Source of the DNA: Cytospora piceicola
Taxonomy: Eukaryota > Ascomycota > Sordariomycetes > Diaporthales > Cytosporaceae
Length of the DNA: 64,000 nt
Assembly: GCA_023375675.1 (NCBI GenBank)
Contig: JALQBC010000010.1
Location: 186,001-250,000, forward strand
Reading direction: 5' to 3'
The translations under genes were made by a program, and so were the position numbers. Below are positions 1,965 through 45,142 of this stretch, piece by piece (the first letter of the stretch is position 1; each line of letters starts with the position of its first letter). Below the pieces are notes generated by a model. That model had not been told where the DNA came from and did not search any database. It was given only the letters and a program-made list of their open reading frames with translations.

Positions 1965-4900
1965 CTACGGGGCATAACCAAGTTCTTCTCGGTTGTCGTC
2001 TACCAGTCTGCCCCACTCCAATAACAACCTGAACATGTAAACCTGCATGTCCTCTTTTCTCAACGCTTTCGCCGCCCAGTTGCGTCCTTCGCCAGCAATA
2101 TGCTGGGCTAAAGGTACCGGTGTTTCCGACTCGGTACTTACGACAATGTACTTACTCACAAGCCATATCACATCCCATATCCCGCTCAAACTAACATCCA
2201 GCGGTACGTAGTGTTTCCATGGATGCGTCCTTTCATCCATCCACGTGCGAAATAGGGTCGCTCTATACACAGTACTTTTGCTCTGTAAGAACGGCAAGAA
2301 TCGCCCCGAAAAGCCGACCCCGTCAAAGTCGATGAGGTGTCGGTGCAACCAGTGGTCCTGAAAGTCTACCGTTGGAGGATCTTGCGCCGTACCGTCGTGG
2401 CCGTAAAATGTAGACGCCATACTCTGGCAATAAGTCTGGTCACAGCGGGTGAACTTCCCGGTAAAGGAGATATCGACGGCCGGAGCATCGATCCGGGTTG
2501 ACAAGCCTGGCCGAGCCGTCTTCGCGAGGTTGACGGCTCGCGCCCTCATAAACCCGGGCCAAGTGTTCCCGGCAAAGCCGTCCGAGCTTGAACCGCGCCA
2601 GAAAATGGTATCAGCTTTGGTCTCCCACTCTATGTCTTTGATGTCGTCCACAGCCACCTTGTCGACGAAGTTCCACGGGCTCGGCACGAGGATATCATTG
2701 AACCCGCCCGCTCTGCTTTGGCTGAAAATGGGCATTGCATGTTGCGTTATGGCAAGCCCACTCCTAGGAGAGAGAAGGAAGCCGTGCATTTGAGCTAGGT
2801 CGGGTCGATTGCATAAGTCCGGTACAGACGCGATGACACCACCTCGAGCTTCAGCCATTGCGCGATTTCCATCCCACCATCTATATCGCAGCGCAGCAGA
2901 ATTGGGAGGGCACGTCGGCGCGATCCACTCATCAAAAACACCCAATTTGGGGTCCTTCTCGTTGAAGTACTCGGAGCGACGAGTTTCGCCATGCTCGAAC
3001 GCGTCATCATCCCACGGCGGATCAGCTGCCTTGCTGAAAAGCTTACGCAAGGGATAGCTGTCAGCCTCCGGCGTAGACGACAGCTTGGCGAGATCGTGAG
3101 CGGGTATTGCCACACGACACTCATCGTCAAGATTGAACACGAGGTCCATGTCGGGAAGCTTGGCTGCAAACGGCTCAATCATTGCTTTCCATGCCTCTAC
3201 CATCCACCTGTGTGTTGGCTGAGTGTTTGGGCCCATCTCCACACTACCACCGCGAATCCGCAGTCCTCCAAGACCAAGACCCGTTTGCGCGAGCAGGTGG
3301 CTTGTCCGCGACCGCAGCTCAGCAGGCGTTAGCCCCCAAAAGGGCTTCAAGTCACTGTGGATTTGGTCGAAGATGTCGATGATCGGTGAGTTATGTGCAA
3401 CGGCGAAGCTAAACCACTCGTCAAACTTCGGTGGCGGGGGCAGTCCGTACCGTGCTTTGTACACAACGGCCGCCTCGCGGGCGCTGTGGCTTGTCCCGGC
3501 GTGATTAATCCAGTCGTCCGAGGCCAGCTGTCCGTTTTCAATGATGCTGATGGGGTCCAGCGGTTGCGAAAACGTCGAGCGGGTGAGATTGGCGGCGAGA
3601 AAGAGGGTGATGATGATAAAGCACATCGTTAGGCGCTTTTGATGCTGCGGTTTCTCTGCGGATGAGAAGGGCCAGTCCTCGGTGTCGAGGCGGATTGTAT
3701 CTCGAGCAAGGAATGCCAAGCATATTACAGCAAATAGGCCTAAAATTACGGCTATCGCAGGTATGGGGTATGCGACACCATATCCAGTAATGGGTTGTGA
3801 AGTGTAAAGTGTTGCTGTTAATGTAGCGACGCCTATAAGGGCTAAAGTAGTTGGTGCTAGGTAGGCTAGGAGATATAACCCGGACAGGAGGACGCCAGCA
3901 GCTACAAGGCTGTTCAAAAAGAGGTTTCTGACGACAAGGCCTCGAAAAGCTGAGGTTGCTGCTATTTCCCTCAGGCTTGATGTCGCCAATGGCGAAGTGA
4001 CTGCGAGGGCAAACAGCATAGCCAGCGCTGCAAGAACACAACTCACAGCTAGGCGACCTACATGGGCCTTAGATGTCGACGTTTCATCTGACTGGAAGGC
4101 TCTTCTCCTTTGTCGGCTCGCCAGGAACAGCGCACTGGCATCGAAAACTTGGACCAAGAGCTCGACGAGACCTGCTGCAGTGCCGGTGGGGCAGACCATT
4201 CCGGTGTTTGGCTTCGTGGTGAGGGCGAGAAGCCTGTTTGCCAAAACAGCCCAGGCAAAAGCAAGGACGAAGTGGCGAGTGGGAAAATGCTGCCTAAGCT
4301 CCGTCTGCTTCTTGGTAGTTACTGGTGTGCCGGTATAGGCGTGCTTGTTGGGCCACGACCATTGCACGAGAATGAGTACTGCGGGAAGGAGCAATATCTA
4401 GCAGATCGAGGTTCAGTATGCGTTTCTTTACACCCGGCAGCCTTCCTCTCAGGCTTGCAATCTTGGTGTCGAAGACTTACGAAACCTCCCTGGGGAGTGC
4501 ACTGTGCCCACCAAAGCGCCTCGCGGGAAAGAAAGGCTCTCACCACCATTGCGGCAGAGACGCCCAGAACATAAAAGATGTCGGTCCTCGTCCGGCTCTG
4601 CGCGACATCACGCCAACATTGTATGCCTGAAGAAAGCTGTGCTCCAGAAATCCACCTCAGGTGGAGAAGAAGGACAAGGCCAGTCCATAATAAGCTAAAT
4701 GCGGAGAGGACGACAGGTCGTTCTGTGGCTTCAATATTAGCCCTGTGCAATACCTCGCCAGCCTGTGTTCTGTTCGGAACATGACTCTGCCAAGAAGAAC
4801 TCACCCAGGGAGGTTGTTGTCAAATGGGCGCACGAAGTGAAGAAGATGCCCAGAACGAAGATACTACAGCTACAGTCAGCTATGTGAAATCAGGAGGTTT

Positions 4901-9499: not shown

Positions 9500-9504
9500 T
9501 CAAC

Positions 9505-9693
9505 TATCAGGTATCAACACGAGCTGGATCTAACTGAAAAACAGGCACGATAGCATGTATGATACAGTCTTCAATTCCAGTATGGGTATGTTGTTATTGT
9601 CTGGAGAGAAAAGAAGAAACTAACTAACTAACTGGAAGGGAAGGAAATGGTATTTAGGGTGGCTAGCTAAAGTAGCTTACGTAAGCCCTGACA
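9505..9693 (-). repeat. 3' LTR of the retroelement
   Basis: It matches the copy at 24725-24913 at about 94%; all eleven or so differences I count are transitions. It is preceded by TCAAC at 9500-9504. Confidence 0.9.
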
Positions 9694-9695
9694 TA

Positions 9696-9703
9696 CCCCC
9701 CTC
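9696..9703 (-). other. Polypurine tract
   Basis: Read on the minus strand, GAGGGGGG lies two bases before the TGTCAG start of the 3' LTR. This is the expected position for priming plus-strand DNA synthesis and supports minus-strand orientation. Confidence 0.7.
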
Positions 9704-9889
9704 GTGAAATAAGACGATCATGTCTTTATAATGCTTTTATCCTTTGTCTTTTGTCTTTTGTCCTTCCTTTGTCCTTTGACCTTGTTTCCTCCGTTTCTTT
9801 ATCGCTCATATCGCTTATATCGCGTATTATAGCGTTCTAATATCCGTACCCTTACTTTCTCCTTGCTCGTATCTATCCTATGTCGCTAT

Positions 9890-12800
9890 GTCCTTTACTA
9901 GGTTAAAGGTCTTGCAGACTTCGTCTAATCCTGATTATTAGCGACTTTCGTTGTCGTGTCTCGATCGTTTTAGTTAGAGGTCGCAGCTACTACTATAGCG
10001 TTGTTATTATCCTCGTTTCCGGTAGTAGTAACGTTGTTTTAGCCGTCCTAGCCGGTAGTGTTTTACTCTCTGCTAGTAGTAGTTGCGGGGGCTATATTAT
10101 CGCCGTCTTAGCCGGTAGTGTTCTACTTTCCGCTAGTAGTAGTTACAGGGGCTGTATTATCTTAACCTCCGGCGGCGACTACCTCTATAGTAATATCCGT
10201 AAGGGCGCCGATGTTCAGTCGTTTTTTCTTTAAGGCATTGCGTTAGCGACGTAGGTTATAACGTTAGTTTTTAGATATAAGAATCTTAGGATGCTAGATT
10301 TCGCCGCCGTCGTTTAACTTTATTACCTGTTCCTCTTCTTTCTCGTCGTTAGCTTTCTTAACTTCTTTTCTAGCCTTACGGTCTGCCTTATCCTAGCGTG
10401 TTTAGTCCGGGTCGAATATTAAATCCTTAGCTAAAGGGGTAATGTTAGCGATATCGATAACTTACTTATCTTCTTTAAGCAGGCGGTAGGCTTAGTCGAT
10501 ACGCTAGTCCTTATTCGCTTTAGTTCCTTACTTTAGTAGAAGGGTTCGACCGGTTCCCTACTAACCTAAAGACTGATTATTAGCGAAAGGGTTGTAGTTA
10601 TAAGCGGGGTTATTTAAAAGACCGGTATTATTTACGGTAAGGAGTAATATATAAGTCCGAGTGTAGTAGATGTTATTAGCGTAGTATATATACTAAACCT
10701 TTATATTACCGTAAGCTATAACAAGAGTAAAAAAACGGAGATCGATGCTTTCTTAATCACGTCTGTCGGAGATATAGGCGTTATCTATGTTTATAATATA
10801 TCCGAACGTATGTTAGTAAGCCTATTTAGGTCTTCTTTTAACGATAAGGTCGGGATAGATAATATTAATACGACTGTAAACAGGTCGGCTAGATACGATA
10901 ATTAGCTTAAATAGGTCCTATAAAAAACCTGCTTTCTTATTAATAACTTAGACGTTAATAATAAACGCGGTCTAGTTTCCTTAGTATCCGTCGATAGTAG
11001 TTAGCTTAACCTGTTCTTTATAAAGTTCGTAAAAGGATATTAAGTTAAACTTACAACGAAGGTATTATAATATCGTATTATAGGGAGTAAGGATAACGAT
11101 TTTAAGAAGCCTGCTATCCGGGCTATAGACTCCGTGTTAATAAAGTATAGCCGCTTTATATAAAGCGATACGTACCTAGGAAGTGTTAGATAGACTTATA
11201 CCCGAGGTATATAGTTTACCGAGAGTCGTAATCGTAAGGTAGTTGCTAAAGAGTAGTATCGGCTTTTAGTTTTTAGGCTTAGCTTTAGAAATAATACCGC
11301 TAAAATAGCGATAAATAGCCTTAATAGTTAGATCGGGGATGCTAGTATCGTAAGATAACTGTATTCTGCCGTTATATATAATTTCTACGGCGATTACGTA
11401 TATTCTTACCTTATTCCGATAATTAATAACGAGCTTTAACGTTTATTCTAGGACTTTTAATACGACTTTTTTAAGAGTCGACGTTTTAAACTACTCTATA
11501 AATAGCTATTTAAATATAGCGATGTCGTTGCTTACGCGGTATACTTTATCCGCGAAGAGTATGTTTTAGCCTTTTCGTATAACTTTAAGAATCGGTAGGT
11601 TAGAATAGGCGTTATTAATAGCCCCGAGATCTGCCGAAAGTATAAGGATGTTTCCTTACTAGTAGTTGCTCGAAGTAAGGAAGACTAGGGATTTTAGATA
11701 ATATTCCTAGATTATAATAGTGTTTACTTTAGGTTAAAAGGTACCTTCGTTAACGGCGATGATTTCTAGATAGTAGAAATTATATTCGGTAAGTTAAACT
11801 ACGACTACTATAATGTAAATTATAGCGTTTACCCGGCTAAGTAGGCTTTTAATAAGCCGCTTTAGGTAGCGCTTAATCTCTTTAAGACGATTTACGTCTT
11901 TAAGCGCCTTAGGATTGCTAACGTTTTAGATAAAACGGGATAGCTAAGGCTTTCGTTTTTAGTTAAAGAGAGTACAGATAACAGCGTTAAGGCGGAAAAT
12001 ACTTTCGGTTAGTTTACGATACTCGAAATCCCTTTCTTGTTTAGCGAAATCCTGGACTATATCGAGGTTAAGGCTTAAGTTTATACGCTGTCCGTTAGTA
12101 AGGATGTCGGGTTTAAAGAGTACGTGGTTAATCTTACGTCTCGTTATTTAAAATATAATATTGCCGATAGTAACGTCGATGTTATTAACTTTAAATATAA
12201 CACGGTTTTTAAAGCTTAGAGGGTGCGCGCCGATGTTACGAAAGAGGTCGTTGTATTTTCGGGCGACTCGTTTACTATGTTTGTTTTAGTTAACGATATG
12301 TAAGACTTTAGGCTAATATAACTACATGTCCGGCCGAAGCTGTTTTACTTATTAGGCTTTGTCTGATTATACTACTAGCTTTTAAGGCTCGGGATTGTTT
12401 ATATCTATTAGCCTAGTGATAAAATTTACTATTAGGGGCTTTACCGGAGGAACCTAAGATGAAGAAGCTTTAGCCGGGGGAGCCTGAGATAAGGAGGCTT
12501 AAGCTAGAACTCGGGCTAGAGCTTAAGCTAGAGTCTAAGCTAGAAAAGCCTTAGGGGATGTGTTTACGATGTTATTAGTCGCGAGGTTAATTATGTCGTA
12601 GGGGACGCTGAAGTCTGTAAACTTATTATCGATGTAAAAGAAGGCGTATTCTATAGAGTGTATTTAGTTCTTAAGATGTTCTATACGTTTAAACTACTAG
12701 CGTTAGTAATTAAGGTTAAAAAGAGCTTCGTACTTATTAAGGAGATCTTTAGGATGTATGTGTCTTAAACCTGTAAGTGTAATAGTATCGTGGAAATCGT

Positions 12801-15800
12801 GCTGTATAAAGTTCTGGGCGTAGGGAATAAGGTTCTAGATGTAGATACTGCGAATAGTAGGGAAAATAGTCTAAAGAATATCCTCGACTATAGACGGTTT
12901 AAGGTTAATTATATCTATAAGAGGCTGTAGAACCGTGATATCTAGTCTGTAAGAGAGCTTAAGGAAGGTAATAATATTATAAATTGTCTTAATTAAAGTA
13001 TCGACTTTATTCGGTACGCTTTGCTTACCTATCTGTAGCTACTATAGTTCGTTTTAGATTATCTTAATGCTTTCGGGGAGTTAAGGCTATATTACGTTTT
13101 AGATATCGGACGGAAAGCTAACCGTAGGCTTTATAGTAACCTTATCCTAAATTATAAATTAAAGGCGTAAGGCTTACGTTATCGCCTTTTGTTCTGTGTA
13201 AAACTTTTTTAATAATTCGGAGTTAACTAAAGAGTTTTATATAATACTACAGACTATATTCTGAGTGTAAGATTTCCCGGATCCTGTATAACCCTGTATA
13301 AATCCTTTACTAAATAAGAGTTTTAAGAAGTTAAAGAAGTAGTCGAGCTAGCCGTTATCGAATTATAAAATCTTTATCGCGTATATATAAGCGAGATATG
13401 CTATCCGAATATTATACTTATAAGTAGTTTAAAGAATTAGCTCGCTTTACTTATCTATCTGTTAAAGAGGGAATTCGATGTTTTAAGGAATCTCGAGGTT
13501 CGCGTCGTAGACTAGTTTATTAAGTACGAGCGTATAGACCTAATCGAGGAAGGGGAACAGCTTAAAAGCGTTTAGTATAACGGGAGTGTCGGTAAGCTTA
13601 CGGAACTACTAGTATATTCTTTATTAACGATAGGTATCGTACCTTCTAAAGCTTTTAATACAGCACTTAATTATAGTGAGGTCGATAGTATAAGATATTA
13701 TAGTTAGAAGCTCTAAAGACTTCTATACTTTCTGTAGTACGTATATAAATATTTCGACTGATTTCGTACGCTAAAGGTACGGCGGTATCTTAAGTAAGAC
13801 GTAAAGACGGCTAAAAACGCCTTTAGGCTAGTTAAAAACCTAGGGAAGTCGAATTATAAAGTAAAGGAGGCTAATCTAACGTATATCGTTATCCGGGTTT
13901 ACGCAGACTTTTATTTATTAGGTAGTTCTTATAATAATCCTAGAAGGTATACTTAATATATCGATTTACTAACTTACTTAACGACCGATATGCTTTCGAT
14001 AAGTCTGATTAAACTCGTCGGCCTCGACAGTCTTCGTCTTTTTATTAAACCTTAGCGGAGTCTAAGCTAAAAACTTACTTGCCTAAAGAAGCTAAGCCTT
14101 ATATATTATAATCTAGTCTTAAAGGTCGGATTTAGTAGCAGCTTTTAGGCTACGGAGGTAGACGGCGAGGATAGCTATAACTCGGTAAGCTCGGTTTTTT
14201 TTTTTTTTTTTACGAACTTTAAAAATAAGGGAATGTAGCTCGTTAGTAAGGAGGTTTTAAACAGATTTATAGTTCTTAAGGACTCCGTATAAGGCTATAG
14301 GGACGGCAATATTAAATACGAAGTCTGATTTAACTAAAGGTACTATATCGATAATAGTGCGTATATCCGCTGTACTAATAATCTATAGCTACTATACGAG
14401 CGGAACGGGGACTAGGTTTTAATTTAGATTTATAACGTTAACTTATTAAGATCCGATAGGAATTAGGATAATACAGAGCTTCTAAGTAAAGAGTTTTGTT
14501 AATATTAAGTTCTAGAACTCGTGTTTACGAAAGGTCGAGTCTAAAAGTATAGTAAGATACTGTTCCGCTAAGTCGAAGGTTATACGGGCTAAGAGTTAAG
14601 TCGTATTTACCGGTAGTTAAAGGTTAACTATACGAGGTTTAATAATATAACCGTCGGTAATATTACGTATAAGTTCTAAGATAATATTAGTACGACCTAT
14701 AAGGTAGAGTTCGTTTAACCGGTTTACTTAATTTATAAAATTAAGCTACTCGATAGGGAGAAAGGCGTTAAGTTCGAGATGAGTAGCTTTAAGGTATCGG
14801 TTTTAAATCTAGCCGATTTCGGCCTGAAAGTTAGGAACTCCTATTTACTAGAGGTCTTCCTGTGTTCGCTTATTGTAATAGAATTACAGCCGGTTCGGGT
14901 TAACGCGGAGCCGTATATACTACGCGTTAGACGTAACGTCGGTTTTACGATCGAGCGTGTTAAACAGCTACTATACTTACTAAGTAGTGTTTTAGGAGTA
15001 TTAGGGAGGTTGTATAATTACGGTAACGGGAATAATTACTCGAAGGAAAACGACTTAACGGTTAGCGATAGTATAGGTGTGCTTAATAATAAACGACGGC
15101 ACTTCGAAAGGTCGGGCGAGTAGTTGTAAATTTATACGAAGTCGTCTTTAAACGTCGTTACTTAGCCTGCTAAGGGTGTTATTTATATAGTTAGTAAGTA
15201 GCTTTAACTGTTTCTAGTTAACGAGAACGATATAACTGTAAGTATAGGATTGCTTTAAAAGTATAACTTTTCCCTCGAAGTCTACTGCCTTTTCGAATTC
15301 CTGCTCTTTCTTAAGATTAATGTCGATGTTCGCTATAGGTTAATTGGGCATATTCTTAAACGGCTTACTATAAGGAGTAAGTGTTTTATCTTTAAACTCT
15401 TTTTTAAAGATAGCTTCGAGGTTTATGTACTTTATATATTAAACGTTTTTAAGGGTAGGATTTCCTATATAGAAGGCGTTAACCTGATCGTGCGTAAGGC
15501 TTTACTCGGACGTTACTATATCGAGAAGGGATAATAAAGGGTTGTTAACGGTAGCTTCGGGTTCGTTTTCGCTCTATACGGAAAATATAGGCGTAGTTTC
15601 GGCGGGATCGTAGAATTAAGAGGCGGCTTACTTAGCGTTGTCTATACGGAAAGTAGATACAGGTACCTTAATTGTTTTACGATAGTTAATCTAGGTGAAG
15701 TCGGAAAGGGGATATACTACGTAAGCTTTATCGAAGTCTTTTCTAAGCTTATATTTTATAGTATTAAGATCGTCGAGTACCGCTATTCGTTTCTTCTAAG

Positions 15801-16660
15801 AGATAGATACGAACTAACGAGTATTATAGGATAACGCGTCTATAAGTAGAGCGTAATAGATATATTATTAGATTAAGGTAAACTCTGCAGATAAGATAGG
15901 TATAGTTCGGAGCGCTTAAAGATAGTCGTTAATAGATTAATCGTAGAGGATATAGTTATAAGAAGAGATGTTATAGTAAGGTTCGGGGATCTTAGGTTAT
16001 AGCGTTTAGTTAAAGTTAGTAGGCGAAAGAATATTAAATATATATAAGACGCGATTATTATCGTTAGGTCCTTCGAAGCTGTATAAGGCGTTACGATACT
16101 AGTCGATATTCGTAATAAATCTTAAATCCGCTTTAGCTATCGAAAGATCGACGTTAGACGCGAGAAATTATCGTATCTTATCCTTAGAGATAACGTTGTT
16201 ATATACATATTTAAACGCGTTTATCGCGAACTCGCCGTTAATTTCGTACTTAGTTTCTATTAGTTCGTTATAGTTAATAGGGAGGGGCGCGTCGGACGTA
16301 TGACTAACGTAAAAGTTAGTAGTTTATTTATTAGACTTAGTAGCTTAGTTAGCAGACTTTGTAGTCTGCTTATTAATGTCGCCTGCGCTAGCTCGAATCT
16401 TGATCGCGTTAATAAGTTACTTCGTAGTAATGCTAACAGGAGCCTGAATACGGAAAGCTAGAACTATTTTACGATTAGTCTAAAGCTGTTTAGCTGTCTT
16501 ACAAAGAGTTTTATAAAGGGTGTCGCGAGGATACTTAGAGAAGAATAGAACACCGTTATTATAATTAACGTAGAGGCCGGTGAATGCCTTTATCGCGTCG
16601 GGCGCGTTTAGCGCGTCCGCAAAAGCCGTAGGCTCGATATTAATAATAAGGTTCTTACGA
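9890..16660 (-). pseudogene. Second long ORF of the retroelement; C-terminal part superfamily-1 helicase-like
   Basis: Read on the minus strand, the region stays open over every stretch I translated except for TAA/TAG codons explicable by RIP of CAA/CAG (16650-15920, 12540-12361, 11760-11560, 11160-10810, 10165-9950). At 11100-10810 it shows LTPYN, then TIDGY(stop)GN, then GFL(stop)D and IVSSRP. This is the order of motifs IV, V (TxDxxQG) and VI (ALSRA) in the AAA_12 half of Upf1/Dna2/NAM7-type SF1 helicases. Around 11700-11640, ILILSADLGAINN resembles motif Ia. I could not find an intact Walker A. A Q/P/S-rich linker lies near 12500. The N-terminal ~1,300 codons match nothing I know. It could be one ORF or several, and could be element-borne or a captured host gene. 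Confidence 0.6.
10042..10161 (-). repeat. Two in-frame 60-bp tandem repeats in the second ORF
   Basis: Units 10042-10101 and 10102-10161 are aligned without gaps. On the minus strand they encode related 20-residue units rich in Thr and Asn near the C-terminus. The exact 60-bp period preserves the reading frame, supporting that this was coding. Confidence 0.75.
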
Positions 16661-17179
16661 GCTATTTTAATTAATAATAGTAAGTAGATTAAAAAAAGGA
16701 TTGTGTAATAATTTGCTTAGTATAAAGTTTAAGGTTTATAATTATAAGGGAATTAATAAAGTTGTAGAAGGTTTAGTAGTTTAAAGGTTTAGTGGTTTAA
16801 AGGTTTAGTAGTTAAAAGGTTTAGTGGTTTAAAGGTTCGGTACAGTAGAAGGGTTTTTATAGTAGTAGGTTGCTACCTAGTAACGCTAAAAAAAAGCGTT
16901 TATAGCTAAAATAGGTGTAATATATTTTTTTAACGCGAAAATTCACATATTACGTTACGGAACGCTTTAATTTAGAATTAAAGGTAAAGAGAATAATAGG
17001 AATTTCGTTATTATATATATAGGGTGTTAGTCTTACTCGCGGGTTATTCTAACGCAACGATCTATCGCTTCCGTTCTTACCTAAGCTGCGTTTAATTAAT
17101 TCTAAATTAATATTCTTTAGCGTAGCAGGAGATAATAATTACTAAAGGTAAGTTATTTATAAGAGCGTGAGATATAATG
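16661..17179. other. Spacer between pol and second ORF inside the retroelement
   Basis: This is the AT-rich non-coding junction. Four to five 16-bp tandem units of the type 'aaggtttagtggttta' occupy about 16766-16840. An inverted pair, 'taatttagaattaa' near 16968 and 'ttaattctaaatta' near 17093, follows. It could hold a promoter for the second ORF or mark an old insertion junction; the sequence does not decide. Confidence 0.5.
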
Positions 17180-20100
17180 GTTTTATCGGTAGGTTTTAAC
17201 GAGCTTCGGGACGTCGTAAATAAGGCTAGAATGCGGTTCCTAGGTTATACCGTCGTAGTTTATCTACTTAACTTCGTAGTAGAGAGATTTAACCTCGTCG
17301 CCGGGCTTTTATATTTAACTATAGCCGATAATAGCTTTAATAATGAATTTTTGCTCTTTATCTATCGTAATTAGTCCTAGGCTTAAAGGGGTAGTTTTAG
17401 CTTACGTAGACGAGGTAGGGATAAGATATTCGACGGAGATTTTAAGGTTTTATTTTAACTAGCAGGGGAGTTCGATACGGTACTTAAGAGGGCTAAGTTT
17501 ATCAAGGATACGATAGGGGCCGGCCTGTTTAAAAAACAGCTTAGTCTAATAGTCGAATTTATAGCTTCGGTTAGCTTCTTTAGCTAGTTTAATATAGACG
17601 TAGTTATCTTTATCGAGGTTAGGTAGTTTATAATGTCGCGCGTTATAATATATTTTTATACGAGCCTATACGATTTCTAGGTGTTTTACCGCTTCTTCTT
17701 TAGCGATTTACTACTAATAACTAAACTTATATAATAGATTCTTAAATAAGGGGAGGAAACCGCGGGGAAGTTGTCCGTAAAGTATAATATATAGAATCTG
17801 CTTTATCGATACTAACTGTAAGGTATTTAATATATACAGGACGTAAGGTAATCGGCGTTCTTAAGATAAAGGATCTTACAGGGCCCCGACGTATAACACG
17901 AGGCTTAAGATTATAGTCTAAACTATCCGCTCGGCTTATTTATTTACGGCGGGATAGTTAGCTGCGGTTATACGAATATCGATACCTACGGCTTAATATA
18001 AACCTCGTTAAAAGACTATTGTAAACTTACCGTTTATATTAGAGATAAAAACGTCTAACAGGCTTTAATTAGGATAAATATACTTAATATAAAGCTTAGC
18101 TTAATTTTCTACGTTAAACGTAGTCTTACTAATAAGACCTCTAATGAACTTAGACGTCTTATAGGTAATAAGGAGAACGTAGTTATTGCCTTTTATAGAA
18201 ACTGGTAAACCTACAGAGAAATCGAGATATAGCACTAATAAAGGGATTCGGGGAGTATTAATCGGCTATAGATTACCGAAGGGGAGATACTTAGAGGTGC
18301 TACGAAGTCTATAAACAGCGTATTCCTTAACGTAATTTTTAACCTTCTGTTTTATTTATAGAAAGAATATCGTGTTTCGGAGGAACTTAAAGGTACGATT
18401 AATACCGATATACGTATAATTATTATAAGCTATATATAGAATTCGGCGGATTCAGGAAGAAGGTATAACTAAACGGCTACGGTCTTTATCTATATAATAG
18501 AGGAGGCGGCTATAAGGATGGAGACGGAAATTATAAAAGCTAAGATCTGGTCTTTAAGGATTGCTTTAAGTTTTGTTTAACTGGTCGTATAGGTTCTTAT
18601 AGATAGATTTAAAACCTTTATTTATTTTTAAGGCCTGGATAAGGTCGGTTTCGAATGCTTTAGACATTTGTATAGTTACTGTGACTATACTATTAACAGA
18701 GGCGGTGACGATGTCTGTTATAGGCACGTGCTGTAGAGTTATTTCTGCTTGTTTAGTTGAGTCTTCCGGAGCGATTGCGGGCGAAGGGGGTCTGTCTAAG
18801 GGCTGTAGCTTAGGCAGAACCTTAGGAACCTTAGGCACGGGCTGAGTATTAACTAGAATAGCTGGAATATCGGATGTAATTAACGTAGCGGGCTTTATAA
18901 CTAAACGAGCTTACTGTTTAGTAACGATATAAGTACGGACAATAAGATCCGTAAGTCTATAATTAGGGGCTTACGGTGTCGGTTCTGTAGGGGTATACTT
19001 ATCTTTAATTTTAGGTAGTTTTAATAAGGCGTCGGTATTAATATGAGTTTTACCTAGCCGATAAGCGATATGAATCTTGTTAGCGTATTTAGCTAGGAAT
19101 AGCTGCTATTTAGTAATACGACAGGCGTTTCCGGGAAACTTAGTTACGGCTTTAAACGAGTGCTTAATAGATTTATGATTAGTAATAACGTAGATATCGT
19201 TATAGTCGAGAAAATAAGAGTATTTCTCGAGGGCTTAGATAAGTTTTAATATCTTTAGTTTTAAAGCGAAGTATCGAGTCTTTACGGAGCTAAGTGTTTA
19301 TAACAGAAATAAGATTAGACGGCTTTTTCCGTCGGCTTATAGTTAATAAAGGCTAGTATCGATACCTTTTTTACTAGTGTTAACGTACAGATAAAATAGC
19401 TTAGTATAATCGGGAAACGTTAAGTCTACGGTATTAATTAAAGCTTATTTAAGTCGCTTTTAAGCTTTAAGACATCGTTACTAGAGTACGTTATAATAAT
19501 TTTACTTTTTTTTTTAAGCCGCGACAACTACAGGCGTAGTATTAGCAGGTGGGGTTATAACTTTAGGGGGGAATTTAAAGTAGCGAGTATACGTATCGCG
19601 TTAAGGATTCGCGTAAAGGCTACCTTTAAAACCTAAAGTCTTTAACTCGTTAAGCAGGTTAGCGATAATAGAGTAGTCGGGGATAAAATCTCTATAGTAA
19701 CCTATAAGACCTAGACTTATCTTAAGAGTTTATAAATCGGTCGGTATCTTTAAGTTACAAATGGCTTCGGTCTTTTTTTTCGTCGTAGATAGTCTTAGAC
19801 GCGAGATAAAATATCTTAACGCTTTTAAACCTAGCTATGCGAAATAATATTTACTTAATGATATAGTATAACCGGAGTTCTTAAAGATAGTAAAAACTAC
19901 TTTTAAATAGTCTAAGTAATTATTAATGTTTTTAAAGAAGATAATAATATCGTCGATATAGACTAAGACGAATTACTAAAGATAGGAACTAAATAGCCGT
20001 TTTATCTTATACTAAAAGAAAGCTAGTGAATTTATAAGACTTATAGTGCTAACCGTTATATATTATAAACCGCGATAAAGAGTAACGAATATAGTTTTCT

Positions 20101-21850
20101 AGCGGTCTTCCGGAGTAATCGGTTATTAAAAAAACCCTTTTATAATGTTTATAATTATAAAGACGGTAAAACCTTTTAAGGAGTTAAAAATATTATCCTG
20201 TCGAGGTAAGGGATAGCCGTGAAAAACGAGTTTAGTATTAACGCGACGAAGGTCTACGACTACGTATAGCTTAAAATTACGTTAAACGATGAACGCGAGC
20301 GATGCGTAAGAATAAATTTCGCCGACCGGGACGTCTTTAACAACGCCGATACTTCTTAAAGGGTTAATAATTAAATTAAAAGCCGCCCGATCTCTATAAA
20401 ATATATTATACGGTCTTTAGATAAGGTCGTCGAAGTTAACGCTTTTTTTAAATAGAATGCTTATCTTAATACTATTATTAAATTAATCTAGGCTTAGACT
20501 AAATAGCCGGGTATAACGAAGGATTAACTATCGAACCTTATTAATCTGTTTCGAGGTTTACTTATTATAAATATCGGCGTCGTTAATATTAAAATCGGGA
20601 TCCGGCACAGGTATATTAAAAGGGTGACCGTCGGGAAATCGTCCTTCTTTTTTATTAAAGGGTATATCGTTTAATAGGTCGGCTAAAGGAATCGCTATTA
20701 GTGTTTTATCTTTCTAAGTAAGATATATCTGAATATTTTCGACGATAGTAAGGCGTTAGAGATAACCTATAACCTGGCCTTTACGAATTGTAATAGGGAA
20801 GTTATCGAAATTTAAGAAAGGGAATATATAAGTATGCTTATCTGTAATAACGTTAAGAAGAGATTTATATATAGTGTTACGGCTATCGACTATAGCTCGT
20901 AAGGTGAGTAAATATCTATCGACTACTACAGGTAACTGCTAGTAACGAGTTTTAATATTATAACCTTATTTAGGTAATATAATAACCTTTTATATAGCTT
21001 TAAAGACTGCGGTTTATTTCTAAACTAAGGGATTTCTAATATAAGTAACTTAGATTTAACGACTAGTGTCGGTAATATAAATCGTTTTATTACGCCTCGG
21101 GGGGCCTTATTTAATATATAGCTGCTTCGCTTTTAAGAAGGGAAGTTTAAGAAGTAGTCTATAAGAAAGTTCGTTGATAATATATATATATTTAGTTATA
21201 GTTTAAGATTGCTTTTCTTTATCGGGAATGTCGATAGGGATTTTAACGCGGTAGGTAATTAGTAGACCTTAGCTAATACTATTAAGGGGAATAGGTTTAA
21301 ATAGTAGCTAACGCTAGGTATCGGGGTAATTTTTTCGAAGGAGTTCTTCCGATATAAGAGTAACGCTTAAAGTAATATCGAGGACTTCTAAAATATACTT
21401 ACCGGCTAGAGTTCGTATAACTATTTTTAAGTAATCGAGTTTAAAAGGGGAATAGGACTAATCCTGTCGGTCTAAAGCTATAAAGGTAGATAATAATATA
21501 TTTACTAGAGGTAGTTTATATTCGCCTTATATAACCTAGACTTTAAGGTTATTACGACGGGGCGGCGTTTTAGATTTAGTAGATGATTTGCTAGCTGATA
21601 AGGTCTTCCGTTTTAATGTAGGGGATGATTTCTTATCTAATAAGGTTTTTATAGATAATTTACTGCCTAATAAGATTTTACGTTTTGATTTAAGGGATGA
21701 TTTAGGGGATGATATATTCTAAGGTTACGGCTTTATAATATCGCGGCGTAGCGGAAGCCTAAAATTAATAGAATTAAGTGCTTCGGCCAGGTTTAGTCGA
21801 TAAGTAGGTAAAATATCGTTAGCGTTTTTAATAATAATAGAAGAGGGGAT
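17180..21850 (-). pseudogene. Ty3/gypsy pol (protease?-RT-RNase H-integrase), RIP-inactivated
   Basis: Minus-strand reading gives reverse-transcriptase landmarks: YPLP-type motif near 20240, catalytic YIDD at 19949-19960, and 'LGLIGYYRDFIPDYS' in the connection region (about 19690). RNase H-like 'LFYLYVNTSKKGI' follows near 19400. The integrase core reads from about 18340, with 'LYLDFSVGLP', a degenerate second Asp block, and 'AERIVQT' carrying the catalytic Glu. The chromointegrase-like tail with 'GPYRILDKLSPLKYRIELP' ends near 17400. The order RT-RH-IN is Ty3/gypsy, not copia. Dozens of in-frame TAA/TAG codons make it non-functional. The protease was not identified with confidence. Confidence 0.8.
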
Positions 21851-24420
21851 TTATACCGCTGGCGGAGGCGTCTTTTAAGCTATCCGCCGGGCTATTTTTC
21901 CGACTTAACGGAACTAAAACCCGAGGGCTTAGAACCGTTAAACTCGGATGTAGAGTCTACGTAATAGCGATTATTATAGTATTACTTAATATTATCTAGA
22001 ATCTCCGGAGTAAGTTTCTCTTTAATTATATAGGCCTTAATATTAGATCGACGATTGTTATCCGTATTAGAGTAGCGGTTACCTTTAGCGTACCTTTTTA
22101 TACGTCGGTAGCCTCGATCGTTACTACGGTTGTTATAGGCAGGCTTTTTATATCTCTAGCTATTGTTTTTGTTTCGGGAATCTTAAGGTTTGTTAGTAGT
22201 GGGTCCGGAAGGCTTATCCTAGCGATCTCGGTCTTAGTTCCGGCTATAATCCCGACGGTCTTATAGGTTACGGTTACGGTTATAGTTCTGATTACGGTAG
22301 CGGTCGAAATCTTATCCGCGGTTATTATTACGAAGGGTAAATTTAAAAGGTACTCGATTATTATACCGACGGTTATCGAAACGATCTTTATTAAAAGTCC
22401 GATCGACGCGAGTGCTAAACTTCTAGAACTTTTAGAGCTCTCGCCGGAGATCCTTAAGCTCTTAAGCTTACTTATCTGTATTCTCCTTATCTTTACGCTA
22501 TTTTTAGCGGATATTATACTCCTTACAAGTAACCGTGCGTTTAAATTCTTTTAATATATTGCCTTTTAAACGGAACGTAATAGCCGCCTAAAGATCGGCG
22601 TTTAAACCTTTATAAATACGGTAGACTTTAACGTCTTCGTCGATTTTACCGGCTTTATTATATAAGCGAATCTTCTTATCGATATATTATTAAAGAGGGA
22701 GCTAGTCTTTTTTATTAAAGCTGTATTATATCTTATCGGCTTAAAATATAAAGTCGTTACAATTAGACGTAAATCGTTATCGTAATTTAATTTCCTAAAA
22801 AGAGAGATTATCTTTTAGTATTTCGCGTTTACCCGGAGTTAACGATATAAACTATCTGGCTTCGTTATTATCGAGGTAAGAAATAATACTAATAGACAGA
22901 TTAGCGAGAACGTTCTCTTCTCTATATAGCTTAACTAAGTAATAGATTTTAAAGATATAGGTGTTTATATCTTTACCGTTAAATTTAAATATATCTAGCT
23001 TTAATTTAAATGCTATGTTCCGGAATATAGCGGAGGTTCGGTTTACGTTATTACGTAAGTTCCGGAATTACTTGAAGCGGCTTCGATTGCGTTTACGGCT
23101 GTAGTCGTAGTCTTTCGCAGGTGATAAAGCTCGGAATCGTTTAAGTTTCTTTAATAGTCTTTAACGCTTTAAAGATCTCTAACGAGATCGGGAACGAGGA
23201 CGGGATCGAAAGCGAGGTCTACGGTCTTCGACTTATAAGAGCGACGCGTTACGTCGACGGCGACGGCGTTCCGAATTATCTTCCGTCTTAGATTCTGCTA
23301 TTCTTCTTCTGCTAAATGCCCGTTATCGAGATAGGCCGAAGGCTAAGCCGGCTCGGACGGGAGACTATACGTTTATAAACCTAGCGTTACGGGCTTTTTA
23401 TCGTCGGTCCGGTAATTAAATAGTAAGTCCGCGTCGGAATCGTGTTAATATAGCGACGAAAGCGTTCTCCGAACATATCGCGGCGCGGGGGGAATTAAGG
23501 TCCCGATAAACGGCGTTAATCCGGGCTATACGTTCGTCTTCGTAGAACTGTCTTAAAAGGTTCCGGATCTTATAAGAGACGTCGTATAATATATACTTTA
23601 CTAGCTCCGGGAAATCGTATAAGGCTATAGCCTGTTCTACAGTATAGATAAAAGTAGTATCGTAAAGGTAGTCGATTTAGGAGTATAGGGGAGCTTAGGG
23701 CAGGGGATTATTTATATCTGCTATAGCGGGAGAGGTAGGCTGTAATCGGGAAAGGGGTTTAATATAAGATAGACTGTACGGACGAGGGCTGTTAACTCGG
23801 GGTTATTCGATAGGCTCGACTATACTGTTAGGGTGTTAATGATATAGAATGGCCGGTTGGATAATTTTATTAGTCGCGATATATCGCGGCTTTAGGGGCT
23901 CTAGGGTAGGGGAAAATATAAAGCTTAATAACTTCGATATAATAATCTCTGTGTCCTGCGGAGCGTTGATAATCTTTGTGTCTTACGGAGCGTTAGTGCT
24001 TTCCGTATCCTGCGGAGCGTTAATAACTTTCGTGTTCTGCGGAGCGTTACTCTTTCTTCCGCTTACCGAGTGATTAGTGTTATTTAGCTTAAACAGGAAG
24101 GAGCGGTTCTGTGTTCGAATAGCTGTGTCCTTTATTAAGAAGGTACGTTTCTGATCCGCTTTTGTTGTTGACTGGAATAATGACGTCGAGGGACTTTAGT
24201 AAATAGGAAGAGGTCTGGTAGGTAACTTGGGGGTGACTGGGGCTACTAGGGCTTTGTCGGGGGGAGCCTCTGGGGCTTTGTTGTCGCTGGGAGCCTTTGG
24301 GGCTTTATTGACCTTGATGAATCGGCCGTTCGGTTTACGAGCTTTATCGCGTTTGCCTTTGCTACCTATAAGGGTGTTTTTTGTCGTAAAGTAGTAAGGG
24401 GAAGAAAAAATCAAACCAGA
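21850..24420 (-). pseudogene. gag-like region of the retroelement
   Basis: This lies between the 5' LTR leader and pol. At 22440-22020 (minus) the translation is rich in Arg, Asn and Asp (for example 'YNNRSNDRGYR'), typical of a nucleic-acid-binding gag tail. A CCHC knuckle is not clearly readable, though Cys-to-Tyr change by RIP could hide it. A 72-codon ORF rich in Lys/Pro/Ala (24414-24196) lies near the start and is less damaged. Boundaries are approximate. Confidence 0.55.
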
Positions 24421-24706
24421 TTAACTAGCACGCTGTTGGAATTGGGGGATCTCGAGGCTGGCTATTATCGAGGACTGCTCGGTTTATTTTAGCCGACGCA
24501 GGCGAAGGTCGTTCGAGCCGATCTCCCTAACACCGCGGGATCAGTTACGGTGTTAGTGTTCGTCTTAGGCCGCTAGCCGACCTGGCCTTATTGTGAAGCT
24601 TCTCAGCAGGGTTTCGTGCTAGCACCGTGGCAATGGTATCTTAGGCGCGTCTGAACGCGGCGCGGAGGCGTTTTGAATCGTGAGAATTGACGTGAAAACG
24701 ATCAAA

Positions 24707-24724
24707 TCGAGGTTGTAGCTACCA
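24707..24724 (-). other. Primer-binding site
   Basis: Directly inside the 5' LTR, the minus strand starts TGGTAGCTACAACCTCG. TGG pairs with the CCA end of a tRNA, as in most LTR elements. The plus strand here resembles the last 18 bases of a tRNA. Which tRNA is not determined. Confidence 0.7.
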
Positions 24725-24913
24725 TATCAGGTATTAACACGAGCTGGATCTAACTGAAAAACAGGCACGATGGCATGTATGGTACAGTTTTTAATTCCAG
24801 TATGGGTGTGTTGTTGTTGTCTGGAGAGAAAAGAAGAAACTAACTAACTAACTGGAGGGGAAGGAAATGGTGTTTAGGGTGGCTAGCTAAAGTGGCTTAC
24901 GTAAGCCCTGACA
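24725..24913 (-). repeat. 5' LTR of the retroelement
   Basis: 189 bp, about 94% identical to 9505-9693, and followed by target duplication TCAAC at 24914-24918. It lies 17 bp downstream of the stop codon of the GH128 gene on the same strand. Confidence 0.9.
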
Positions 24914-24934
24914 TCAACCACATCATCATACCCA

Positions 24935-26507
24935 TCAGTGCCTAGCACAGCCCTTGGGCTTCGCACCACCACCGTCACCCTCCGCCGGAGGAGGGGGAGC
25001 ATCACCTACACCCGCATACGGCGTGAAGGCGTACGCCTCACCGAGGTCGGAAAGGGAGGGACCATCGTTCTCGAGCAGGCTGGTGTAATGGTCCGCAGTG
25101 CCAAAGTACGCGTACCGCTCCACGCAGTCCTGCTCGTCGAGCCAGGCGATGGCCTCCTGCATGAACTGCTTGTTCGCGGTGTTGTTGTTGCCAAGGGGCA
25201 TGAACTGTGAGCGGGAAGAGAAGGGCCAAGGGTTAGCGGCAGTCCTCCAAGGGGATTGAATCGTCACTGATGGGGGGGGGGTATTGTTGGATATACCTCG
25301 GTGACCCAGATAGGCCTATTTCCGACCAAGCCACACATCTCCAGGGTGAAGGCCTTGAAGTCGTCGATCAGGATAACGGGGTTGTACCAATGGATAGGGA
25401 CGAAGTCGATGGTGCAATTAGTGCAGAGGGCCAGGAACTCGGTCATCCAAGTGTAGCCATCGTTGGAGACCGCAGGGGCGCCGAGCTTGGCCTTTCCAGC
25501 AAAGGGCTGCATGTACTGGAGGTAGGCATTGGCAGCTGTAGCGGGGTCGATGTTGGACTGGCCCGCGTTCTCGGGCTCGTTGAAGGCCAGGAGGTGTGAA
25601 GTACCAGCATCGATCCAGGCGTTGGAATGAGCGAACCACACGTCAGGCTGGCCGGGGATCGTCCAGAGCATGGGAACGTACTCGCAGAACGGCTGCTTGT
25701 TTGTGGTGTTGGAGTCCCAATTGTACTGCCAGACAATCTGGGAGTTGTCACCACCGAAGTCCTGTTCAAATTGATGTGGGATGTCAGACATCAATTTCTA
25801 AAGAATTTCTTGTTGAACAAGAGACTTTCCAGAGTGGTATTCTGGGGAAAACTGCAGTAGGAGACGGAGACTTTGTCACAGGGGATTTTCTTCTGGATAG
25901 GGGACGACGTGCTCGTGGTTCAAATGAAAAGAAAGGATATGAAGGGGCATGAGAGAGTAATCCAAGGGGAAGCGCAGGTTCAATAAGAAGCAGCACAAAG
26001 ATGATGATACCCATGATATTATATCATGGAAGACTAGCCATGGTGCCATGTTTGGAACTGGGACACCAGCAAGGGAAGAAGATCCCAGGTAGTGAAATAA
26101 CACAGCCCACCAAGAGGAAGGGGAATCAAATGACAGAGAAGGGGGTGTAAGAGGATGTGAAAACGATCTGTCACATACCGTGATCTTGATATCGTCATTG
26201 GCACCGAGGCCGCGCTTGGGGTTGGCGGCAAGAAGCACATCAGCCATCAGGATGGCTATGAGAAAGGCGGAGAAGACGACCCTGAAGTATATACAGGTCA
26301 GCAAAACACAATGAAGTTCTCCGATGGCGCTACCATAAGGTCTCTGGATGCGATGGTATCGCAAGTGTTGTGTAGTAGGGTGGTGTTGCAAGAGAAGCTT
26401 CAATGCGATGCGATGCGACGCGACGCGACAGATTCTCAGAGCTGCGGTGTAGTGGGAGCAGGAGCAAAGCGGAGGTTGAAGACGACATACTTCTTTAGAG
26501 AATCCAT
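24935..26507 (-). CDS. Asl1-type GH128 glycoside hydrolase (secreted beta-glucanase family)
   Basis: Four exons join in phase: 26507-26491, 26281-26179, 25761-25297 and 25204-24935, giving 284 residues. Introns are 209, 416 and 92 bp. Exon 1 encodes only MDSLK plus two bases; the spliced N-terminus is a signal peptide (VVFSAFLIAILMADVLLA) followed by NPKRG. Family landmarks are the KRGLGAN start of the mature domain, WQYNW, the FNEPE acid/base Glu block (about residue 95), and WVTEF with the candidate nucleophile Glu at the exon 3/4 junction. GH128 enzymes cleave beta-1,3-glucan; S. pombe asl1 acts at the cell wall. The Pro/Gly-rich C-terminal tail is short. Splicing inside WVTE/FMP restores the motif exactly, so I trust that join. 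The 416-bp intron is long for this genome. Confidence 0.88.
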
Positions 26508-43755: not shown

Positions 43756-45142
43756 CAGTGGGTGGATAAAAATACCGATCCCGACGCGATTTTTCGCGTT
43801 AATCTCGTACCGACTTTTTAACTTTTACCTTTTAAAGTTTAACTACGATAACATTATAACACCTACGGGGCCTTAAACAGCACTATTCTCCTTATATAAA
43901 AACTAAAATTATTATAGAATATTATCTAGGGTAAACTCGACGATATCTTTTTATTAAATATAACGTACCCGAGGGTACGGTGTCTAGAATAGTCCTTCGG
44001 TATAACACTTAAATCGGAGCTAAATCTTCCCCCGGCCGCGGTATACCTAAAAAGATTACTAACGATTAAATTAAATAAGTCTATAATATCGTTAAAAGGT
44101 AACCTTTTATTTCTTTTTAAAACTTAATTAGAAAAGCACGTTTAAGGTATTATATAAAGACTTTAATTAAACGCTTTAAAGACGATAGCATTAATTACGT
44201 TAAAGTATTTCGACGGCTTTTTATTATAAAAATAGTAGCTGAAAAACGCTTTATATATACTTATCTTTACGTTCGAAAGCCTTTTTCCTTTTAGAAACGT
44301 ATTATTTAATTAGATAAATTAACTATCGCTCGAAAAGACAGCGATCGTACGAAGTATATATAATACCGCCGAGTAAGTTAACTTACTTTTTTTATATTAA
44401 GTCGATTTCTAATAGTTACGATTTTTCTATAAAGTAAACGACTATTACTTTAAAACGTATAACTAAAAGCGAAGCTATTACGATATTCTTAAATATTTTA
44501 AAGCGCTTTTTTATTTAATAGACGAACTTCTTTTATACCTTTAATAGGAAATCTAAACTCTACTCGTAACGACGTAAATTTAATACGAATACTTAAGCTT
44601 TATACAGAAACTTTAAAAACTATTTATAAGCCTAAGTCTATTTTTTAATAAGATAACGCTCTTATTTATACGGCACGGATTATAATAGCGTAGCTAAAGT
44701 AATTTTACGATAAAAATAGTATAGAATTACTCGATTATTCTCCTTATAGTTTTAACCTTAATCCGATCGAAAATATATAGAAGTTACTTAAAGAAGAAAT
44801 TAATAAAAAGTACCTCGAGCTCGCTACTTTTAGTATAAACTAAGACTCGTATATAAGATTAGTACGGGTAGCGATTAAAGTATAAGAAAAGATTAAATAA
44901 AGTGTACTTCGAAACTTAGCTTTAAGTATACTGTAACGACTTAAGGCTGTTATTAAGGCCGGGGGCTATTATATAAAATATTAGATAGTTGTATTTTAAA
45001 TACGATTAATTCGTGTAACTAGAAATTTAATTTACTAGCAAATCGTACGTGATTTAGAAGATCTGTTATATTTAAAAGTGATTTAGTTGATGCTGTGATT
45101 TAATGTGGTTTGGCTGGGATCGGTATTTTTGTCTACCGACTG
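43756..45142 (+). mobile_element. RIP-degraded Tc1/mariner DNA transposon (1,387 bp)
   Basis: The terminal inverted repeats begin CAGT(G/C)GGT and share the block AAAAATACCGATCCC. TA flanks both ends (43754-43755 and 45143-45144). The interior is AT-rich with CA/TG depletion. A transposase is readable on the plus strand but full of TAA/TAG codons. Confidence 0.9.
43900..45050 (+). pseudogene. Tc1/mariner transposase (DDE_3), inactivated
   Basis: At 44643-44660 the plus strand reads F-stop-stop-DNA, matching the QDNA block that holds the second catalytic Asp. At about 44731-44780 it reads YSPYSFNLNPIENI followed by a stop where Trp is expected, the classic 'PYSPDLNPIE.W' block with the third acidic residue. 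Stops fit CAA/CAG/TGG changed by RIP. Gene limits are approximate. Confidence 0.8.

What the first reader, a model, noticed from the sequence alone, without database searches (positions are those of the whole stretch)
9505..24913. 15.4-kb LTR retroelement carrying a second giant ORF with a superfamily-1 helicase end
Seen: matching LTRs, TSD, primer site and polypurine tract bound a single unit. It contains gypsy pol and, after the integrase, about 6.7 kb of minus-strand frame open except for RIP-type stops. Near its end are LTPYN, TIDGY(stop)GN, GFL and IVSSRP in the order and spacing of SF1 helicase motifs IV-VI. Known: fungal gypsy elements are usually about 5-8 kb with gag and pol only. Inference: an unusual lineage of retroelements with helicase cargo, or a host helicase gene captured between pol and the 3' LTR.
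Basis: partly seen in the sequence, partly recalled or inferred. Interest (0 to 1): 0.88.

Follow-up and report, generated by a model that had tools for sequence, protein, structure and literature searches.

The report
Giant fungal retrotransposon encoding a helicase
A 15.4-kb retrotransposon in a fungal genome, now mutated to death, carries between its replication genes and its end a very large extra gene for a helicase-type motor protein that has jumped around the genome with it, so the helicase was part of the element and is not a chance neighbour.

Summary
Window 9505-24913 is one LTR retroelement on the minus strand: 189-bp LTRs (10 differences, all transitions), TSD TCAAC, PPT and PBS-like sites, and Ty3/gypsy pol at about 17165-21463. 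It is heavily RIPed. Between pol and the 3' LTR lies a second frame of about 2.1 thousand codons (about 10252-16650). Unmended, with X at stops, it matches Pfam AAA_12 above the curated cut-off (E 6.7e-8), with a Walker A motif upstream. The block is not a nested insertion: all 6 copies that keep the 3' end of pol show the same pol-ORF2 junction. All 6 copies whose outer flanks were both read have 5-bp TSDs at different sites (5 exact, one with a single C/T difference). ORF2 looks protein-coding across copies: 23 of 47 transversion sites are third positions (20 of 36 outside a repeat), and 9 of 9 listed gaps in the repeat are multiples of three. No ORF2 relative was found in the protein database, at limited power; the pol profile found 77 proteins. 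Best reading: a fungal gypsy element with an Upf1-like SF1 helicase as a retained accessory gene. Its function is inferred.

The parts
9500..9504 (.). target-site duplication TCAAC, left copy
   Evidence: identical 5 bp at 24914-24918
9505..9693 (-). 3' LTR (minus strand TG...TA)
   Evidence: 95% identical to 24725-24913
9694..9706 (-). polypurine tract, minus-strand CACGAGGGGGGTA
   Evidence: sequence next to the 3' LTR, similar tracts in other copies
10037..10156 (-). 60-bp tandem repeat (2 copies, 85%) downstream of ORF2
10252..16650 (-). ORF2: frame of about 2.1 thousand codons with 137 in-frame stops, helicase at its C-terminal end; both ends approximate
   Evidence: AAA_12, third-position transversions and 3n gaps, stop counts
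10897..11484 (-). Pfam AAA_12, second RecA-like domain of SF1 helicases
   Evidence: E 6.7e-8, 32.8 bits, cut-off 27; 2 of 7 copies scanned singly, window included
10873..10905 (-). motif VI-like LIIVSSRPVYS
   Evidence: position; motif name recalled
10963..11004 (-). motif V-like LTTIDGYxGN (x = stop)
   Evidence: position; motif name recalled
11068..11100 (-). motif IV-like IVILTPYNTIL
   Evidence: position; motif name recalled
11401..11433 (-). LVINYRNKVRI, resembling the L-x-x-N-Y/F-R segment of SF1 helicases
   Evidence: position; hhalign to a host helicase sets it against LTENFRSK but without significance (probability 0.7%, E 0.081)
11620..11721 (-). motif II/III-like stretch (TIIIxEYYLKS ... 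ILILSADLGA)
   Evidence: position; the expected Asp codon reads as a stop, so tentative
12436..12519 (-). Ala/Pro/Ser-rich repeat; copies differ by gaps of 3, 9, 12 or 18 bases at 12503-12546
13264..13305 (-). Walker A (motif I) GYTGSGKS
   Evidence: window sequence; GYTGSGKS also in two other copies, variants in the remaining three that cover it
16768..16847 (.). 16-bp tandem repeat in the pol-ORF2 spacer
17165..21463 (-). pol: RT, RNase H, integrase, flanked by stretches aligned to the protease side and the chromodomain side of P0001
   Evidence: P0001 residues 26-1435 at 50% identity, 69 in-frame stops; chromodomain of P0001 at 1375-1430
19838..20194 (-). reverse transcriptase core (RVT_1)
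   Evidence: E 3.5e-8
19085..19411 (-). RNase H (RT_RNaseH)
   Evidence: E 1.3e-11, 1.9e-11
18305..18466 (-). integrase zinc-binding domain
   Evidence: E 7e-4, below the curated cut-off
17453..17602 (-). integrase SH3_Tf2-1
   Evidence: E 9.9e-6, below the curated cut-off
21464..24710 (-). 5' leader and presumed gag region; no family found
   Evidence: 0 families in the three frames of 21801-24502
24711..24724 (-). primer-binding-site-like TGGTAGCTACAACC; tRNA not identified
   Evidence: a genome pattern search found only two element loci
24725..24913 (-). 5' LTR
24914..24918 (.). target-site duplication TCAAC, right copy

Best explanation
This is a RIP-inactivated copy of a roughly 15.4-kb Ty3/gypsy element, most likely a chromovirus. 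It carries a second, separate gene in the sense orientation between pol and the 3' LTR, encoding a protein of about 2,100 residues that ends in an Upf1-like superfamily-1 helicase. Shown: the unit, its TSD, the recurrence of the same pol-ORF2 junction in independent insertions, the AAA_12 match, and signs of coding constraint across copies. Inferred: the element moved by ordinary tRNA-primed reverse transcription and integration of one RNA spanning both genes, with ORF2 made from a spliced or otherwise separate message as env-like genes are. The helicase acted on the element's own RNA or cDNA, either by clearing structure and proteins from an unusually long template or by protecting the RNA from host surveillance and silencing.
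For: LTRs, TSD, PPT and PBS-like site. Pol domains and an intact relative aligned nearly end to end. AAA_12 above cut-off, seen in 2 of 7 copies scanned singly, with Walker A upstream in frame. pol-ORF2 junction unbroken in 6 of 6 copies that keep the 3' end of pol: window, C31, C34, C90, C19, C35. 8 of 8 strong ORF2-end matches abut a 3' LTR. 5-bp TSDs in 6 of 6 copies with both flanks read, 5 exact and one with a C/T difference. Third-position transversions: 23 of 47 distinct sites in ORF2 (p 0.019), 20 of 36 outside the repeat (p 0.005), 16 of 22 in pol as control (p 0.0002). 9 of 9 listed gaps in 12503-12546 are multiples of three. pol and ORF2 show similar densities of transversion sites: 22 in 3.9 kb and 47 in 6.4 kb.
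Against: The repeat was excluded after seeing the data; with it the third-position bias is weaker (p 0.019). Some of the nine 3n gaps are shared events, so they are not independent. Stop counts do not single out the frame (137 against 149). AAA_11 was not matched, and AAA_12 was reached by only 2 of 7 copies. Profile searches of solved structures found nothing and the hhalign comparison with a host helicase is not significant. No ORF2 relative was found elsewhere, so a wider lineage is not shown. The AlphaFold model failed (mean pLDDT 28.6). Gag was not identified. No data bear on function.
Confidence: 0.72

Rival explanations
1. Passenger: an element ancestor captured a helicase gene once, and ORF2 then rode along in a short burst of transposition without doing anything for the element.
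For: Only this genome shows it; no ORF2 relative in the protein database. Gene capture downstream of pol has precedent (PMC6431247, passages).
Against: Third-position bias and 3n gaps in ORF2 suggest constraint while the copies diverged. Many copies may post-date one burst, so this is not strong.
Confidence: 0.22
2. Nested composite: a separate helicase-bearing transposon or a host gene lies inside an ordinary gypsy element.
For: Nested insertions do occur in this family: a different element with repeats of about 233 bp sits inside the C19, C35 and C31 copies, and C34 and C90 share another insert. A telomeric helicase-plus-gypsy composite is described in Colletotrichum higginsianum (PMC5576322, passages).
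Against: Same junction in 6 of 6 copies and six TSDs around the whole unit at different sites. No long inverted or direct repeats bound the block; the inverted pairs found are 18-21 nt and scattered. 8 of 8 strong ORF2-end matches abut an LTR; two weak 71% fragments on C30 were not followed up.
Confidence: 0.04
3. The helicase call is wrong: AAA_12 is a chance match and ORF2 is a large protein of another kind, or not a protein.
For: RIP has changed much of the sequence, AAA_11 is not matched, AAA_12 is reached by only 2 of 7 copies, the single-sequence search of solved structures gave one weak hit (8ftm, E 0.75), profiles gave none, and hhalign to a host helicase was not significant.
Against: E 6.7e-8 above the curated cut-off, with no family in the eight other pieces. 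The weak hit is itself an entry named 5'-3' RNA helicase-like protein, aligned on the same segment.
Confidence: 0.06

Closest known systems
Ty3/gypsy chromoviruses of Pezizomycotina
   Same: pol domain order, 5-bp TSD, PBS-like site, PPT. The four best-scoring named pol hits are from Metarhizium majus, Rhynchosporium graminicola, Lasiodiplodia mahajangana and Cordyceps javanica.
   Different: About twice the usual size (usual size recalled), with a separate helicase ORF of about 2.1 thousand codons between pol and the 3' LTR. None of the 77 listed pol hits shows a helicase domain in the same protein (only 7991 candidates of limited length were scored, and a helicase in a separate ORF would not show).
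Insect retrotransposons with SF1 helicase domains (Morozov et al. 2017, PMC5563155; Morozov et al. 2019, PMC6338049; passages read)
   Same: A SF1 helicase coded by a retroelement, including Ty1/Copia LTR cases in Aedes and Leptopilina.
   Different: There the domain is described as derived from plus-strand RNA viruses, in or beside LINE proteins and in two Ty1/Copia fusions. Here it matches AAA_12, in a separate giant ORF of a gypsy element in a fungus.
Burro, giant gypsy-like elements of planarians (PMC6431247, section 7 read whole)
   Same: Gypsy-like, very large, with host-like domains; a Dugesia tigrina relative shows homology to the AAA ATPase midasin.
   Different: The extra domains lie in the ORF1 polyprotein upstream of or within gag-pol; here a SF1 helicase lies in its own frame after pol.
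LTR elements with additional ORFs between pol and the 3' LTR in plants and rotifers (PMC7264820 passages; PMC6431247 passages; PMC5408684 search listing only)
   Same: Position of the extra ORF.
   Different: 'helicase' occurs 0 times in PMC7264820; the three occurrences in PMC6431247 concern Helitrons, a giant-virus helicase-primase and Teratorn.
DHX-chim_G203 of Colletotrichum higginsianum (PMC5576322, passages read)
   Same: Fungal repeat with helicase plus RT and integrase; its three families measure 11.3-18.5 kb.
   Different: The authors read it as a gypsy insertion into a telomeric RecQ-like helicase repeat; here the LTRs enclose the helicase.
Helitrons
   Same: Transposon-coded helicase in fungi.
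   Different: LTRs, TSDs and RT here; the helicase matches AAA_12 (Helitron features recalled).

Membership tests
LTR retrotransposon | Paired LTRs with target-site duplication | tested here: met
LTR retrotransposon | PBS complementary to a tRNA, next to the 5' LTR | tested here: inconclusive
   TGG-starting site in place; no matching tRNA found (window scan, genome pattern)
LTR retrotransposon | PPT next to the 3' LTR | tested here: met
   GAGGGGGG in the window, similar tracts in other copies
Ty3/gypsy | pol order RT, RNase H, integrase | tested here: met
   integrase domains are below their cut-offs in the window but above them (H2C2, SH3) in P0001
Ty3/gypsy | gag upstream of pol | tested here: inconclusive
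   no family matched in 21801-24502
Chromovirus | chromodomain after the integrase | tested here: inconclusive
   alignment runs to P0001 residue 1435, past its chromodomain at 1375-1430; no direct chromodomain match in window 17003-17602
SF1 helicase, Upf1-like | second RecA-like domain (AAA_12) | tested here: met
   E 6.7e-8 above cut-off
SF1 helicase, Upf1-like | first RecA-like domain (AAA_11) | tested here: not met
   no match at E <= 1 in any of 7 copies scanned, of which one does not reach the Walker A region; the Walker A motif alone is present
SF1 helicase, Upf1-like | motif II DE box | tested here: inconclusive
   xEYYL with a stop at the Asp position
SF1 helicase, Upf1-like | ATP-dependent unwinding | not testable with these tools
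   needs biochemistry
Insect-type viral SF1H retroelements | RNA-virus-type helicase | tested here: not met
   AAA_12 is the only Pfam match to ORF2 pieces
Nested composite | block absent from sister copies or with ends of its own | tested here: not met

The most novel reading that the evidence does not exclude
A distinct lineage of 15-kb fungal chromoviruses has made an Upf1-like SF1 helicase a core gene, used either to copy long RNA templates or to disarm host RNA surveillance and silencing. Intact relatives would sit in environmental assemblies such as the 12-15 kb contigs that code P0001-P0005.
Probability: 0.4. Interest if true: 0.78.

Novelty: new variant of a known kind. Interest (0 to 1): 0.62.

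Why it matters
LTR retroelements with extra genes are known. Among the papers I saw, those with a helicase are insect elements with virus-derived domains, and a planarian giant gypsy element has a midasin-like ATPase stretch. A fungal gypsy element that carried and copied a helicase gene of about 6 kb bears on two questions: how retroelements exceed the traditional limit of about 10 kb (PMC6431247), and whether they arm themselves against RNA surveillance and silencing. RIP-active genomes would hide such genes, since their frames are full of stops (inference); this one showed only by reading through stops.

Tried and rejected
Protein database search with ORF2, single sequence (5879 candidates) and profile (7992 candidates scored): no hit. 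Power is limited. One search drew words evenly from residues 1050-2100 of a RIPed sequence holding many X, and by the tool's description one search drew words from the first 500 residues, before the helicase. The pol profile gave 77 hits at E <= 1e-5 among 7991 candidates.

Solved structures: one weak hit, none with profiles. NCBIfam (3 proteins) and PHROGs (2 proteins): none. AlphaFold of a 500-residue stretch with 7 rows: mean pLDDT 28.6, so no fold search was made. Viral contigs with A1 and P0001, and prokaryote genome contigs with P0001: none. hhalign of A1 with the C30 helicase: probability 0.7%, E 0.081, not significant.

The C30 helicase gene (1745 aa) near an LTR match was considered as a parent or an intact copy. 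tblastn of ORF2 pieces found nothing, and the LTR lies in the other relative orientation. Pol-only ancestor on C24: rejected, since its pol stops at residue 1218 of P0001 next to an LTR. Alignment A5 was made with a wrong frame for L029 and was not used.

In the genome survey, AAA_12 and AAA_11 family searches did not list the window copy itself, so they undercount RIPed copies. LTR dating was not attempted: all ten LTR differences are transitions.
Full report
Unit. The element runs from 9505 to 24913 on the minus strand. Its LTRs are 9505-9693 and 24725-24913, 95% identical, with 10 differences, all transitions. TCAAC flanks it at 9500-9504 and 24914-24918. Directly inside the 3' LTR lies CACGAGGGGGGTA, a polypurine tract; directly inside the 5' LTR lies TGGTAGCTACAACC, a PBS-like site whose tRNA I could not name. 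GC is 0.34-0.41 in the three internal regions measured and 0.48-0.54 in the flanks and rest. RIP indices are extreme in the element and normal in the flanks.

Pol. Pfam finds RVT_1 and RNase H above their cut-offs and integrase SH3_Tf2-1 and H2C2 below theirs, in one minus-strand frame. A search with the six-copy pol profile gave 77 proteins at E <= 1e-5 among 7991 scored candidates. The best, P0001, is an intact 1441-residue protein with a chromodomain at 1375-1430. It aligns over residues 26-1435 to window 17165-21463 at 50% identity, through 69 in-frame stops. The window itself gives no direct chromodomain match. The four best-scoring named hits are from Pezizomycotina (grouping recalled). 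The species of the window was not identified.

ORF2. From about 16650 down to 10252 a second minus-strand frame, different from that of pol, follows a spacer with a 16-bp tandem repeat. Nine pieces (three stretches in three frames) of 9701-17202 with X at stops gave one Pfam family in one piece: AAA_12, E 6.7e-8, 32.8 bits against a cut-off of 27, at 10897-11484. In the same frame lie a Walker A motif (13264-13305), NYRNK (11401-11433), LTPYN (11068-11100), TIDGYxGN (10963-11004) and VSSRP (10873-10905) (motif names recalled). A stretch like motifs II and III lies at 11620-11721, but the Asp codon reads as a stop. AAA_11 is not matched. Of seven copies scanned singly, two match AAA_12; other copies carry changes in the motifs. 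The first half of ORF2 matches no Pfam family in five copies.

Is ORF2 coding? Because RIP makes only transitions, I counted transversions between the window and the other copies. In pol, the control, 16 of 22 distinct sites are third positions (p 0.0002). In ORF2, 23 of 47 are (p 0.019), or 20 of 36 outside the repeat at 12400-12640 (p 0.005; the exclusion was made after seeing the data). All 9 gaps listed in 12503-12546 are multiples of three, though several are shared events. The other 12 listed gaps are frame-breaking ones of 1 or 4 bases in single copies (at 12709, 13378, 14198 and 16022) and four pairs that cancel within about 12 bases. Stop counts alone do not choose the frame: 137, 149 and 236 stops in the three minus frames.

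One element or two? BLAST of the element against the fetched loci shows the pol-ORF2 junction unbroken in copies on C31, C34, C90, C19 and C35 as well as the window: 6 of the 6 copies that keep the 3' end of pol. In C19 and C35 a later nested insertion lies just upstream, inside pol. The seventh pol locus, C24, ends at residue 1218 of P0001 beside an LTR and is a deletion derivative. A copy on C15 has lost pol but keeps ORF2 between LTRs. For six copies I read both outer flanks: window TCAAC, C31 GTTGT, C15 GGCTG, C90 GTGCC and C34 CTGAC match exactly; C19 reads GTATC and GCATC, one C/T difference. So the whole unit, ORF2 included, inserted at six different sites. The larger spans of the C19, C31, C34, C35 and C90 copies come from later insertions, parts of which were not fetched for C19, C31, C34 and C90.

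Host relatives. AAA_12 and AAA_11 occur in several open host frames. The one I read (C30, 1745 aa) has no tblastn match to ORF2 pieces, and its hhalign comparison with ORF2 is not significant (probability 0.7%, E 0.081). The other host genes were not compared.

Relatives elsewhere. ORF2 searches of the protein database found nothing, with limited power as explained under Tried and rejected. Viral and prokaryotic contigs gave nothing, as expected for a fungal element. The five best pol relatives lie on contigs of 11.9-15.3 kb, longer than a plain gypsy element; that is a lead and no more.

Literature. Eight searches of the open-access library were made. Six exact phrases for helicase-bearing retrotransposons gave 0 papers. 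Passages of PMC6338049, PMC6431247, PMC5563155, PMC10799480, PMC5576322, PMC4522978, PMC3248453 and PMC7264820 were read, and section 7 of PMC6431247 whole. The nearest precedents are insect retroelements with virus-derived SF1 helicase domains, including Ty1/Copia cases (PMC5563155, PMC6338049), a planarian giant gypsy element with homology to the AAA ATPase midasin (PMC6431247), and LTR elements with captured ORFs downstream of pol (PMC6431247). In these searches I saw no fungal gypsy element with a helicase gene inside its LTRs; most subscription journals are not in that library and repeat databases were not searched.

Mechanism. Shown: an LTR unit that moved as a whole, with a second frame under apparent coding constraint that ends in a SF1-type helicase domain. 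Inferred: expression from a separate message, and a role on the element's own RNA or cDNA. Between helping reverse transcription through a 15-kb template and defending the RNA against host surveillance or silencing I cannot choose. A passenger without function remains possible (about 0.2).

Noticed in passing
L045 1313-2916 (G000 C90, near 260105): A 1.6-kb LTR element with 185-bp repeats (97% identical) shares the LTR and about 330 bp of 5' leader (86%) with the giant element. It looks like a small non-autonomous relative that could have been moved in trans. 11 of the 41 LTR matches cover the same part (1-149 of the query).
   Followed up: partly
L016 5233-9999 with L017 1-5832; L010 from 9674 with L011; L009 from 540: A different, very AT-rich LTR element (repeats about 233 bp, 10.6 kb on C35) is nested in three copies of the giant element; another insert is shared by the C34 and C90 copies.
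   Followed up: partly
window 44001-45000: 1-kb block of 27% GC with extreme RIP indices, apparently another RIPed repeat.
   Followed up: no
window 25267-25797: Glyco_hydro_cc frame (E 3.1e-43) just right of the insertion; the left side holds a Glyco_transf_90 frame at 1968-4397.
   Followed up: no
L036 and L037 (G000 C30 about 241752-242366): Two fragments at 71% identity to the helicase end, in opposite orientation to each other, a possible older relative of ORF2.
   Followed up: no
L038 512-5746: Intact 1745-aa host frame with AAA_11 and AAA_12 matches and apparent cysteine-rich knuckles near its end.
   Followed up: partly
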